Assembly (NCBI GenBank): GCA_019638595.1
Contig: JAHBTJ010000015.1
Coordinates: forward strand, 1 to 64,000
DNA: 64,000 nt
Direction: 5' to 3'
DNA from: Chitinophagaceae bacterium
GTDB lineage: Bacteria > Bacteroidota > Bacteroidia > Chitinophagales > Chitinophagaceae
Shown: one piece after another, positions 2,746 through 6,022 of the stretch
Numbering within the stretch: the first letter of the stretch is position 1
Layout of the letters: each line of letters opens with the position of its first letter
Translations under genes and position numbers: made by a program
Notes under the pieces: generated by a model
The model's database searches: none
The model's input: only the letters and a program-made list of their open reading frames with translations
Told to the model about the DNA's origin: nothing

Positions 2746-3402
2746 ATGGCGGTTAATGAAGCAATATACAAAGAGCTTACAGGTTCTTTTTCAAAGAAAG
2801 ATGTAACACTGGTGGCGGTATCCAAAACCAAGCCCGATGAAGATATCCGGGCTCTTTATGATTTAGGGCAAAGAGATTTTGGAGAGAACTATGTGCAGGA
2901 AATAATTGAAAAGCACGCCAGGCTTCCCCGGGATATACGCTGGCATTTTATAGGACACCTGCAAACGAACAAGGTGAAATACCTCGCGCCTTTTATTTAC
3001 ATGATCCATGGCATAGACAGCTTTAAGCTGTTGAAAGAAGTAAACAAACAGGCATCCAGGTGTGGCAGGATCATCCCGGTATTATTACAGGTGCATATAG
3101 CGCGGGAAGACACTAAGTTTGGATTGGATGAAAATGAATTGAAAGCGTTGCTGCTGCAGGCAGGCGAACTGGGGCATATTGTTATAAAGGGATTAATGGG
3201 AATGGCATCCTTTACCAGCGATGCGCAGGCGGTACGGTCGGAATTCCGTTATCTTAGATCGTTGTACGATCAATTACTTACCACTCATCACTTACCCCTT
3301 ACCACCCTGTCTATGGGTATGAGCGGTGATTACAGGATCGCGGTACAAGAGGGTAGCAATATGGTTCGTATCGGGAGCCTGTTGTTTGGCGCCAGGAGCT
3401 GA
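2746..3402 (+). CDS. YggS-family pyridoxal phosphate homeostasis protein
   Basis: YggS/PROSC proteins are single-domain PLP-binding TIM barrels that buffer pyridoxal phosphate; no enzyme reaction is established for them. The PLP lysine is Lys27 in VAVSKTKP. Other family motifs are FGENYVQE, WHFIGHLQTNK and SMGMSGDY with a C-terminal R-x-G-x-x-LFG. The length, 218 residues, is normal for the family. A short low-complexity stretch (LLTTHHLPLTT) precedes SMGMSGDY and is encoded by degenerate TTACC repeats. The gene originally converged on ribF, and an insertion sequence now lies between them without changing its stop codon. Confidence 0.93.
   Translation: MAVNEAIYKELTGSFSKKDVTLVAVSKTKPDEDIRALYDLGQRDFGENYVQEIIEKHARLPRDIRWHFIGHLQTNKVKYLAPFIYMIHGIDSFKLLKEVNKQASRCGRIIPVLLQVHIAREDTKFGLDENELKALLLQAGELGHIVIKGLMGMASFTSDAQAVRSEFRYLRSLYDQLLTTHHLPLTTLSMGMSGDYRIAVQEGSNMVRIGSLLFGARS
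3275..3306 (+). repeat. Degenerate TTACC/CACTTACC tandem words inside yggS
   Basis: Short imperfect repeats of CTTACC- and CACT-like words lie in-frame in the yggS coding sequence just before the SMGMS motif. They encode Thr/His/Leu/Pro-rich residues. Similar short-period word repeats occur in several intergenic regions of this window. Confidence 0.4.
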
Positions 3403-3425
3403 GCATACCAGGTTATAATCTTTTT
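3397..3425. repeat. Target-site duplication, left copy (29 bp)
   Basis: These 29 bases, beginning AGCTGAGCAT and ending AATCTTTTT, recur exactly at 5026-5054 on the other side of the insertion element. The left copy carries the last codon and TGA stop of yggS. Confidence 0.95.
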
Positions 3426-3445
3426 CCTGACTTGTCCCTATCGAA

Positions 3446-3515
3446 TTTAGTGCGGTTATAATATATTGATTGTCATTATTTTAGTATTTTATTTTTGTAA
3501 ATTTACCGCACTAAA
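3446..3515. repeat. Subterminal inverted words TTTAGTGCGG/CCGCACTAAA
   Basis: TTTAGTGCGG at 3446-3455 faces CCGCACTAAA at 3506-3515, about 11 bases before the transposase ATG. The same CCGCACTAAA occurs at 5002-5011 against the right terminal repeat, where it also supplies the transposase stop codon. The left pair could form a stem in a read-through transcript and hide the transposase start; that role is inference. Confidence 0.6.
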
Positions 3516-3525
3516 GGCTGTTTTT

Positions 3526-5010
3526 ATGAAAATAAGGGTAGTAAAGACGGCTTCAAAAGCCAGAGCAGTTCAAATAGTACGGTATCAAAACAACAAACGA
3601 GCCATTTTACAGCATATCGGCTCTGCCCATACAGAACCCGAATTGCAAGAACTGATGATATCGGCACAGGCATGGATAAAAGACTATAGCAAACAACTAT
3701 CTGTTTTCCCCGATGAAAGTCCCAATAAGTTATTGCACCTGAACCATTGTACTTTTCTCGGGGTTCAATACCGTTATTTCCACCAACAGATAAATGCAAT
3801 CCAGAATAAAATGGGATTTGGTGATTTACCTCCATTATTAAATGACCTGGCAACCATAAGGATATTTGAACCGGCATCCAAACTACGTTCGTTGGAACTG
3901 ATGGAACAGTTTTTCGGCATCAAACACAGCCGTAAAACCTATTACAAGATAGCTCCGGTGTGTATTGAATTAAAGGAAGTGATAGAAAGCAAGGTGTTAG
4001 CTTTTGCCAAAGCATGTTATTCATTCGATTTCGATATGGTGTTTTATGATGTTACCACACTTTATTTCGAGACTTTTGAAGAAGACGAGCTGCGAAAGAA
4101 CGGCTTTTCTAAAGACAACAAATCACAGCAGCCGCAGATATTGGTAGCGCTGATGGTAACCAAAGAAGGCTTCCCCATTGCCTGTGAAATTTTCAGTGGC
4201 AACACTTTTGAAGGACATACCATAATCCCTGTTATCAAAGATTTTATCACAAGAAATAAGGTAAAAGCATTTACGGTAGTTGCAGATGCTGCCATGATCA
4301 GCTCGGAAAATATCGCACAATTATCCCAAAACGGCATCAACTATATTGTAGGGGCAAGAATGGGCAATCTGCCGGCAGAGCTGCTCCAAACCATTGACAA
4401 GCAGATGACCCGGCAGGATGGTACAAGCATCAGGATAAGAACAGCCCTGGGTTATCTGATTTGCAGTTATTCGGCTGTACGATACCGAAAAGATCTGCAT
4501 GAAATGAACAAACAAATCGAAAAGGCAAAGCAGGTGATAGAAACACCGTCAAAAAGCAAGAAGCTAAAGTTTACCAAGACCAATAAAGAGCAATTGACAC
4601 TCAATGAAGAACTGATTGAAAAAACAAAAAAACTGCTTGGCATCAAAGGCTATTATACCAACCTGGAAGAACAGATAGCCGACAATAGAACGATCATAGG
4701 GCGTTATCATGAACTATACAAAGTGGAACAGGCATTCCGGGTATCGAAAAGCGATTTACAGACAAGACCTATCTTTCATTTTAAGGAGCAACCCATCAGG
4801 CTGCATATATTGATATGCTTTATGGCATTGGTTGTCTCAAAGCATATTGAAATAAAAGCAGGTGTTTCGATAAGAAAGTTCCTGGACGAAGCGAAGAAAA
4901 TAGTGGACGGGCAGATACTAAACCAGATAACCAGTAAATCCGTTACTATTAAAGCACAGCCAACCGAAAAAATGCAGCAACTTGTCAGCAAAATTTTACC
5001 TCCGCACTAA
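3526..5010 (+). CDS. IS1634/IS4-superfamily transposase
   Basis: This 494-residue DDE transposase catalyses excision and insertion of the element that encodes it. Probable catalytic residues are Asp175 in FYDVTTLYF, Asp254 in VVADAAM and Glu401 in YKVEQAFRVSKSDL, followed by the RPIFHF segment typical of the IS4/IS1634 C-terminus. An upstream TTG at 3466 would add 20 hydrophobic residues; ATG 3526 is preferred because MKIRVVKTAS is a usual start and the extra segment overlaps the subterminal stem. The gene ends one base before the right inverted repeat. No frameshift or internal stop is present. Confidence 0.93.
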   Translation: MKIRVVKTASKARAVQIVRYQNNKRAILQHIGSAHTEPELQELMISAQAWIKDYSKQLSVFPDESPNKLLHLNHCTFLGVQYRYFHQQINAIQNKMGFGDLPPLLNDLATIRIFEPASKLRSLELMEQFFGIKHSRKTYYKIAPVCIELKEVIESKVLAFAKACYSFDFDMVFYDVTTLYFETFEEDELRKNGFSKDNKSQQPQILVALMVTKEGFPIACEIFSGNTFEGHTIIPVIKDFITRNKVKAFTVVADAAMISSENIAQLSQNGINYIVGARMGNLPAELLQTIDKQMTRQDGTSIRIRTALGYLICSYSAVRYRKDLHEMNKQIEKAKQVIETPSKSKKLKFTKTNKEQLTLNEELIEKTKKLLGIKGYYTNLEEQIADNRTIIGRYHELYKVEQAFRVSKSDLQTRPIFHFKEQPIRLHILICFMALVVSKHIEIKAGVSIRKFLDEAKKIVDGQILNQITSKSVTIKAQPTEKMQQLVSKILPPH

Positions 5011-5025
5011 AAGGGACAAGTCAGG

Positions 5026-5054
5026 AGCTGAGCATACCAGGTTATAATCTTTTT
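5026..5054. repeat. Target-site duplication, right copy (29 bp)
   Basis: Exact copy of 3397-3425. It carries the last codons and TAA stop of ribF on the minus strand, so this gene keeps its native end. Confidence 0.95.
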
Positions 5055-5914
5055 AATGACTCTTCTTTGTCTTTAGCAAGCTGATCTTTTAGTTCTTCAA
5101 GGCTGTTGTATTTTTCTTCGGGCCTCAAAAAATACTTAACATATACACGTATGGAGGCTCCGTAAATATCCTGTTCAAAGTTGAAGATATTTACTTCGAT
5201 CACTCTTGGCGATGCGCCGATAGTAGGCCGGATGCCTATGCTCATCATACCTTTAAAACGCGTTCCCTTTATTACTGTTTCCACGGCATAAATACCATTC
5301 CCCGGTATCAGCTTTTCAGGGTTTCCCGGTTCAATATTGGCGGTAGGGTACCCGAGCGTTCTGCCAAGCTTATTGCCGTGCACTACTGTTCCTTCAAAAA
5401 AATAAGAATAACCGAGCAATTCATTGGCGATGGCCACCTCTCCGTTTAACAGCGCTTTCCTGATGCGGGTGGAGCTTACCGCTATTTCATGCAACAGCTT
5501 TTCAGAAATTTCTTTTACGCGGTAACCACAGGCTACGGCAAATTTTTCAAGCATCCGGTAGTCGCCTTCCCGGTTTTTACCAAAACGGTGATCGTAGCCA
5601 ATAATGATGGTGTGAGGTTGAATTTTATCTACCAGGAAATCTGTAATGTACGCTTCCGCGGGCTGTTCCGCAAATTCACGCGTAAAAGGAACAACAATAA
5701 GGTGGTCTATGCCGCATTGGCTCAGCAGTTCTGTTTTTTCTTCCTGCGTGTTCAGCAATTGTATGTTTTCTCCTTTACCTACTATCTTCCGGGGGTGGGG
5801 ATAAAAGCTGATAATAACCGTTTCTCCTTCAATGCGCCGGGCTTCTTCCTTTAGCTGGTCAAGGATCTGCCGGTGGCCCGTATGAACACCGTCAAAAGTC
5901 CCGATGGTGATCAC
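5042..5914 (-). CDS. ribF: Bifunctional riboflavin kinase/FAD synthetase
   Basis: RibF phosphorylates riboflavin to FMN and adenylates FMN to FAD. The N-terminal nucleotidyltransferase domain begins with GTFDGVHTGH and includes SSTRIRKAL; the C-terminal flavokinase domain has GRTLGYPTAN and EVNIFNFEQDIYG. The GTG start at 5914 lies inside the first strand of the domain. The open frame continues upstream without a stop and encodes LQIHTNILNLPSFRKA, which matches the usual N-terminus of the family if translation starts at CTG 5962. No ATG exists in that extension. The gene converges on yggS with the insertion sequence between. Confidence 0.94.
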   Translation of the reverse strand: MITIGTFDGVHTGHRQILDQLKEEARRIEGETVIISFYPHPRKIVGKGENIQLLNTQEEKTELLSQCGIDHLIVVPFTREFAEQPAEAYITDFLVDKIQPHTIIIGYDHRFGKNREGDYRMLEKFAVACGYRVKEISEKLLHEIAVSSTRIRKALLNGEVAIANELLGYSYFFEGTVVHGNKLGRTLGYPTANIEPGNPEKLIPGNGIYAVETVIKGTRFKGMMSIGIRPTIGASPRVIEVNIFNFEQDIYGASIRVYVKYFLRPEEKYNSLEELKDQLAKDKEESLKRL

Positions 5915-6022
5915 CGCTTTGCGAAAAGAAGGAAGATTTAATATGTTAGTGTGTATTTGCAGACGGAAATCCTGTTTCGGGGAGGCTCTTTATTCAATAG
6001 CGGCTGCAAAACTAATGGATAA

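What the first reader, a model, noticed from the sequence alone, without database searches (positions are those of the whole stretch)
3397..5054. IS1634-like insertion at a 29-bp target duplication that spares both convergent genes
yggS (TGA) and ribF (TAA on the other strand) were about 10 bases apart tail to tail. The element inserted in that gap and duplicated 29 bp, so the left copy holds the yggS stop and the right copy holds the ribF stop. Both proteins keep their native C-termini. An insertion without the long duplication would have altered at least one. Long variable target duplications are known for IS1634 and IS1549; the neutral landing in a convergent junction is a fine example.
Basis: partly seen in the sequence, partly recalled or inferred. 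Interest (0 to 1): 0.75.

Follow-up and report, generated by a model that had tools for sequence, protein, structure and literature searches.

The report
Jumping gene that spares its neighbours
A bacterial jumping gene landed between two end-to-end genes and copied 29 bases of the landing site, so that both genes kept their ends; relatives of it copy stretches of very different lengths, a trait of one side of its family tree, which may help explain how such long copies arise.

Summary
A 1,600-bp IS1634-family element (3426-5025, perfect 14-bp ends) is flanked by an exact 29-bp repeat (3397-3425 / 5026-5054). The left copy holds the yggS stop, the right copy the ribF stop. One same-genus genome without the element has a single copy of the junction and the same C-termini.

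The claim that an insertion without the duplication would have altered a gene holds for these two cut points only; a short-duplication insertion inside the 10-bp gap would have been harmless too.

Wider result: of 111 IS1634-family copies with recognised ends, 42 carry duplications of 19-708 bp, 19 carry 4-7 bp, 50 none by my rule. Copies of one element in one genome differ (396/441, 325/131). On the transposase tree one branch (95/93) separates 17 short rows from all 41 long rows, with one short exception on the long side. Next to the element the target base is A at 66 of 82 ends, alike at both cuts and at short and long spacing, which suggests that each end chooses its own site. A 2008 review knew two such elements and no model. 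In 13 of 39 long insertions the duplication regenerates an ORF that a cut would have truncated.

The parts
2746..3402 (+). yggS (YggS-family PLP protein), native C-terminus ...GARS*
   Evidence: TIGR00044, 201 bits; same last residues in G004
3397..3425 (.). left copy of the 29-bp target duplication; holds the yggS stop (3400-3402) and a now unused copy of the ribF stop (3413-3415)
3426..5025 (+). IS1634-family insertion sequence, 1,600 bp
3426..3439 (+). left terminal inverted repeat CCTGACTTGTCCCT
   Evidence: I2
3526..5010 (+). transposase, 494 aa from ATG (ORF open from TTG at 3466)
   Evidence: NF033559 E 1.5e-90, PF01609 DDE_Tnp_1 E 1.6e-10
5012..5025 (+). right terminal inverted repeat AGGGACAAGTCAGG
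   Evidence: I2
5026..5054 (.). right copy of the 29-bp target duplication; holds the ribF stop (5042-5044, minus strand)
5042..5965 (-). ribF (bifunctional riboflavin kinase/FAD synthetase), native C-terminus ...ESLKRL*; start not settled (one search lists a GTG start at 5914)
   Evidence: same last residues in G004

Best explanation
A member of the long-duplication side of the IS1634 family inserted into the tail-to-tail junction of yggS and ribF, recently enough that the repeat is still exact. One element end joined one strand just 5' of an A at 3397 and the other end joined the opposite strand just 5' of an A 29 bases away. Gap filling then duplicated everything in between, including both stop codons, so neither protein changed (supported by the sequence, by one relative without the element and by kin). 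Inferred: on this side of the family the two ends choose their target sites separately (each at N|A), 19 to about 700 bp apart, instead of at a fixed stagger. I think the most likely way is that the two strand transfers are uncoupled in time, with strand displacement or fork-associated melting between them, so that spacing varies. Confidence in the insertion account is about 0.95; in separate choice of the two sites about 0.6; in the asynchronous or strand-displacement detail about 0.35.
For: Exact repeat and ends. Family. Single-copy site in G004. Kin: 42 of 111 copies with recognised ends have 19-708 bp duplications (35 exact, 7 with one mismatch; median 116) and 19 have 4-7 bp. Copies of one element in one genome or record differ: 396/441, 567/708 and 325/131, 406/33 and 158/23, and 43-400 over two related element types in a Mycoplasmopsis record. 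Tree: 17 short rows against the other 42, one branch, 95/93, in 98% of 200 bootstrap trees. Cut-site rule: A at +1 in 33 of 41 at each cut, 66 of 82 together, p 2e-20, against 3 of 38 ends of short-duplication copies. The far copy of the repeat also has this A, so it is target, not element. No helical phasing.
Against: Fifty of the 111 copies show no full duplication by my rule: 11 with short-side ends, 5 with a partial or shifted repeat, 14 with long-type ends but under 1 kb of flank on one side, and 20 with long-type ends and at least 1 kb on both sides. Of these 20, three (L137, L185, L220) have doubtful ends or lie on the short side; the other 17 are unexplained. L146, in a one-contig genome, has no repeat within 8.4 kb although its two sister copies have 325 and 131. 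The Microbacterium element on the long side has 5-bp duplications in both copies. The A rule fails in the five actinobacterial long copies (2 of 10 ends). Independence of the two ends was not refuted, but power is low (Fisher p 0.16). Nothing here observes transposition.
Confidence: 0.8

Rival explanations
1. Replication-coupled insertion: the transposase, drawn to the sliding clamp, joins the two ends at opposite edges of a single-stranded gap or melted stretch at a fork, so the length of that stretch sets the duplication length.
For: Published binding of an IS1634-family transposase to the beta clamp (PMC4549789, passages incl. part of the abstract); lengths of 19-708 without helical phase.
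Against: The Acidiphilium element in that paper has 6-bp repeats at its three sites (figure legend passage), so clamp binding alone does not give long repeats. No strand or fork bias was tested here.
Confidence: 0.3
2. The junction was already duplicated (tandem 29-bp repeat) and the element came in between, or replaced the space between, the two copies.
For: None found.
Against: The one congener found with this gene pair has one copy. An Arcobacter plasmid has one contiguous copy of 589 of the 680 bases of the Aliarcobacter L218 repeat at 93% identity. In 42 kin copies the repeats end exactly at the element ends.
Confidence: 0.03
3. The element makes a long duplication of about fixed length, as reported for the IS1202 group (16-28 bp), and 29 bp is its constant.
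For: Fits the single copy of this genome.
Against: The nearest rows of the tree have 112, 35, 19 and 120 bp. Identical transposases go with 396/441 and 325/131.
Confidence: 0.03
4. Neutral landing comes from selection alone: insertions that broke yggS or ribF were lost, and the duplication is incidental.
For: ORFs of 90 aa or more are broken less often than at random placements in the long set (14 of 39 against 27.3 expected) and in the short set (10 of 18 against 14.9).
Against: In 13 of 39 long insertions at least one cut lies in an ORF that the duplication regenerates, against 1 of 18 short ones (p 0.044). The broken fractions themselves do not differ significantly (p 0.25).
Confidence: 0.3

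Closest known systems
IS1634 (Mycoplasma mycoides subsp. mycoides SC) and IS1549 (Mycobacterium smegmatis)
   Same: Same IS family; long direct repeats of variable length (8-514 bp as given in PMC2266710, passages)
   Different: The window's host is by inference a Bacteroidota member: a same-order genome, G261, shows the same match, place and size as the Aureispira-labelled MAG of L048. I did not have the two type sequences. Mycoplasmopsis and mycobacterial relatives fetched here group with long rows and give 43-400 and 608 bp. The original papers are not held.
IS1634 family, short-duplication members (e.g. ISPfe2, Acidiphilium IS1634-1)
   Same: Same transposase family
   Different: 6-bp duplications (PMC3281130 and PMC4549789, passages). 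These two were not placed on my tree; the short rows that I measured form the other side
IS1202 family
   Same: A family that splits by duplication length in step with transposase phylogeny (PMC10132070, passages)
   Different: Transposase modelled on TnsB in that paper, not IS1634-like; long class only 16-28 bp
IS4 family
   Same: Related DDE transposases
   Different: Duplications of 7-13 bp (PMC2266710 table)

Membership tests
IS1634 family | Transposase matches NF033559 above its curated cut-off | tested here: met
   304.5 bits against 100; the three other IS models hit are below their cut-offs
IS1634 family | Element 1,500-2,000 bp, end consensus C-----YT | tested here: met
   1,600 bp, 14-bp perfect ends CCTGACTT...; size and consensus from the table of PMC2266710
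IS1634 family | 5-6 bp AT-rich duplication (2008 definition) | tested here: not met
   29 bp. The same paper lists IS1549 and IS1634 as exceptions inside the family, so this does not exclude membership
IS1634 family | DDE catalytic residues, no full YREK motif | not tested
   Only the Pfam DDE_Tnp_1 match was seen
Long-duplication side of IS1634 (this report) | Transposase falls with long rows; duplication of 19 bp or more; variable between copies of one element | tested here: inconclusive
   Met: nearest rows have 112, 35, 19 and 120 bp, own duplication 29 bp. Not testable at home: variability of the window's own element (single full copy); shown only in kin
IS1202 family | IS1202-type transposase | tested here: not met
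   NCBIfam best hit is IS1634, then IS1182, IS1380, IS4; I did not check whether NCBIfam holds an IS1202 model

The most novel reading that the evidence does not exclude
One side of the IS1634 family, met here in Bacteroidota, Campylobacterota, Mycoplasmatota and Actinomycetota, inserts by two uncoupled strand transfers: each end picks its own site on opposite strands (N|A outside actinobacteria), tens to hundreds of bases apart. The duplication is then not a fixed stagger but a record of the distance or delay between the two events, and it often rebuilds the genes that it hits. Copies without a repeat would be the products of the opposite polarity (deletions). No DDE transposase known to me (recalled) works this way.
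Probability: 0.35. Interest if true: 0.78.

Novelty: new member of a known kind. Interest (0 to 1): 0.5.

Why it matters
A 2008 family review states that no mechanistic model had been proposed for the variable duplications of IS1634 and IS1549. The survey made from this finding suggests that these are not two exceptions but a trait of one side of the family tree. It gives a length range (19-708), a single-base rule at both cut points that does not depend on spacing, several genomes and records in which one element made different lengths, and a short-duplication sister side as natural control. That makes the question directly testable. It also shows a practical consequence: with long duplications an insertion need not destroy the gene it hits, and annotators should expect duplicated gene ends beside these elements.

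Tried and rejected
Helical phasing of duplication lengths: none (Rayleigh p 0.20-0.99 over periods 10.0-11.0). Lengths fit log-uniform (KS p 0.75), log-normal (0.58) and shifted exponential (0.24) alike, with parameters taken from the same data, so the shape does not choose a model. My first end-finder, which rewarded repeats, gave false ends for some loci (L129, L056, L057); I replaced it by one that fixes ends by motif and inverted repeat before looking for a repeat. Test whether a repeat-less copy marks a target deletion: L133 against two congeners; the gene to the right is there, but the left flank was not found in the 11.4 and 14.0 kb looked at, so a rearrangement is likely and a deletion is not shown. 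Searches for element-free sites of Rhodococcus L215, L217 and L223 in plasmids found only the same record or partial pieces. The viral-contig scan gave no relative. L239's protein was read in a wrong frame (end branches 4.06 and 6.07) and was dropped. L223 and L268 (276 and 255 aa) were left out of the trees. The two G011 element ends lie on different contigs and give no direct repeat. Holding all 18 short rows together against the rest is rejected (p-AU 1.5e-46), because of L214. Dropped before counting: L061 and L062 (truncated) of the 16 loci; L270 and the partial matches (16 of 26 used); several partial or duplicate places; places at contig starts that I did not fetch. L143 was left out, and L143, L151 and L054 (long) and L178 (short) out for lack of flank.

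Full report
Observation. The element and its flanks are as described. Window 3426-5025 is a 1,600-bp element with perfect 14-bp inverted ends and an exact 29-bp repeat directly outside them. Its transposase (3526-5010) matches NF033559, IS1634 family, at E 1.5e-90 and three times the cut-off score, and Pfam DDE_Tnp_1. The left repeat holds the yggS stop and the right repeat the ribF stop; in the single-copy site the stops are 10 bases apart.

Site without the element. Of 12 genomes of the genus, the own one included, 11 have yggS and 10 have ribF by protein search. Among the 10 other yggS loci (about 1.5 kb of flank on each side), tblastn found ribF beside yggS only in G004. There the two genes are tail to tail without the element, the junction is present once, and the proteins end in the same residues as in the window. 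So the repeat was most likely made by the insertion, and both C-termini are native. The window's genome has one full copy and a 71% fragment, so variability of this very element cannot be tested at home.

Cut one lies between the last two sense codons of yggS, cut two inside the fourth-last codon of ribF; either alone, without duplication, would have changed one protein. An insertion within the 10-bp gap would have spared both with any short duplication. The statement is right for these cut points and not in general.

Survey. I gathered IS1634-family copies by protein and profile searches: close relatives in genome contigs (16 loci), the order (6 of 396 genomes at E 1e-100), the class (4 of 395 at 1e-80), the phylum with the family profile (49 of 395 at 1e-60), each of these three counts with the own genome included; 20 of 22 chosen genomes; and 15 plasmid-collection records. 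In the three large searches the tool scored at most three candidates a genome. Ends were fixed by end motif and inverted repeat before any repeat was sought. Of 120 copies, 97 gave ends; of 16 more, 14 did. Of these 111, 42 have a full duplication of 19-708 bp (35 exact, 7 with one mismatch), 19 have 4-7 bp, and 50 have none by this rule. The 50 are: 11 with short-side ends; 5 with partial or shifted repeats (L057, L134, L136, L166, L188); 14 with long-type ends but less than 1 kb of flank on one side; and 20 with long-type ends and at least 1 kb on both sides. Of those 20, L137, L185 and L220 have doubtful ends or group with short rows. The other 17 are unexplained, so against 42 long copies the repeat-less ones are not rare.

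Variability within one element. Copies with identical or nearly identical transposases in one genome or strain have 396 and 441, 567 and 708, 325 and 131 and none (G307, G735), 406 and 33 (two plasmids of one Persicobacter strain), 158 and 23 (a Rhodococcus plasmid), and 43, 50, 53, 108, 125, 255 and 400 over two related element types in one Mycoplasmopsis record, where three more copies with ends have none and two gave no ends. By contrast five Streptomyces copies with one transposase all have 5 bp; a sixth, shorter match there was not typed. The long form is therefore not a constant.

Tree. In a first, quick tree of 116 rows all 38 rows labelled long (five of them partial repeats), with 30 untyped and one short row, fall in one branch with SH-aLRT 99. 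In a careful tree of 59 typed rows one branch (bootstrap 95, SH-aLRT 93; 98% of 200 bootstrap trees) separates 17 short rows from all 41 long rows plus L214; L195 was typed. L214 (Microbacterium) has 5-bp duplications, the same five bases in both copies. Two changes explain the trait on the tree; the root, and so gain or loss, is unknown. Long branches are present and the program warns of them, so exact placements are uncertain.

Cut-site rule. For 41 of the 42 long insertions I read the target at both cuts on the strand that the element end joins. The first target base is A in 33 of 41 at each cut, 66 of 82 together (p 2e-20 against local composition). The second is A or G in 64 of 82; the base just outside leans to G (29 of 82, p 6e-4, not corrected); other positions show only weaker signals. 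The A is part of the target because it also stands in the far copy of the repeat. Outside the five actinobacterial copies it is 66 of 74 ends, in them 2 of 10, at ends of short-duplication copies 3 of 38 (all 42 long insertions). The rule is seen at 19 and at 708 bp alike, which is what separate target choice by each end predicts. The joint table of the two ends shows no significant dependence (29, 5, 5, 3; Fisher p 0.16), with little power.

Effect on genes. Using mechanically called ORFs of 90 aa or more, 14 of 39 long insertions break an ORF, against 27.3 expected for random placement of the same lengths nearby and 32.7 for 5-bp duplications. In 13 of 39 at least one cut is inside an ORF that the duplication restores, the window among the 7 with both cuts in ORFs. 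The short set has 10 of 18 broken (14.9 expected) and 1 of 18 restored. Restored fractions differ at p 0.044, broken fractions do not (p 0.25). With ORF limits of 60 and 120 aa the long counts are 17 and 10 broken, and 14 and 13 restored. Selection against breakage and regeneration by duplication both seem to contribute.

Independent support that the repeat is target. An Arcobacter plasmid carries 589 of the 680 bases of the repeat of Aliarcobacter L218 once, at 93% identity, contiguous with the same left flank and with one Crp/Fnr gene. The right side differs, so this supports a single original copy but is not a clean empty site.

Mechanism. Shown by sequence: long, variable, mostly exact duplications; a one-base preference at both cuts; inheritance along the tree. 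Inferred: strand transfer of the two ends is not locked to a fixed stagger. The stretch between the joints must be melted, displaced or already single-stranded. Strand displacement from the first target 3' end before the second joining, or joining across single-stranded DNA at a fork, would both do. The second has a lead in the reported binding of an IS1634-family transposase to the sliding clamp (PMC4549789, passages), but that element has 6-bp repeats. Uncoupled ends should sometimes give deletions; the one test tried, on L133, did not decide.

Known work. PMC2266710 (passages) gives 5-6 bp for the family, 8-514 bp for IS1549 and IS1634, and says that no mechanistic model had been proposed. 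PMC3281130 (passages) gives 6 bp for ISPfe2. PMC10132070 (passages) shows a similar split by duplication length in the IS1202 family, with lengths only up to 28. PMC3053259 and PMC1798306 were looked at for repeats and gave nothing more on lengths (passages). Eight searches of the held library (two searches listed 12 of 101 and 12 of 26) showed no title or start of abstract that reports a clade-wide long-duplication class of IS1634 or a cut-site rule. Most subscription papers and ISfinder were not searchable, so this does not show that it is unpublished.

Verdict. The finding is real and in the main correctly read. The insertion itself is a new member of a known kind. Its value lies in opening a well-sampled class that makes the old question of variable duplications testable.

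Noticed in passing
window 3446-3455, 3506-3515, 5002-5011: A second, internal inverted repeat (TTTAGTGCGG / CCGCACTAAA) lies inside both ends; the left end has both arms, before the transposase start. The core of both arms is present at the left end in 12 of the 16 relatives. Possible inner transposase site or mRNA hairpin.
   Followed up: no
L253 (G735, one-contig genome): One of three copies with identical transposases has no repeat within 8.4 kb, while its sisters have 325 and 131 bp; possible deletion-type insertion or recombination between copies.
   Followed up: partly
L214, L239 (Microbacterium plasmid): Both copies have the same 5-bp duplication TCCGA although the transposase (L214) sits on the long side: perhaps a return to short duplications together with target specificity.
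   Followed up: partly
L218 (Aliarcobacter plasmid) 2206-2885 and 4623-5302: A 680-bp duplication (one mismatch) leaves a whole Crp/Fnr gene on the left and a copy cut at its start, annotated as a gene, on the right.
   Followed up: yes
L052, L053, L054, L058 left flanks: Hairpins that look like terminators, seen by eye, stand near the left end of the element; a leaning towards gene ends or terminators was not tested.
   Followed up: no
L226, L236, L243, L248, L251 (Streptomyces plasmid): Five copies of one short-side element, all with 5-bp duplications.
   Followed up: yes
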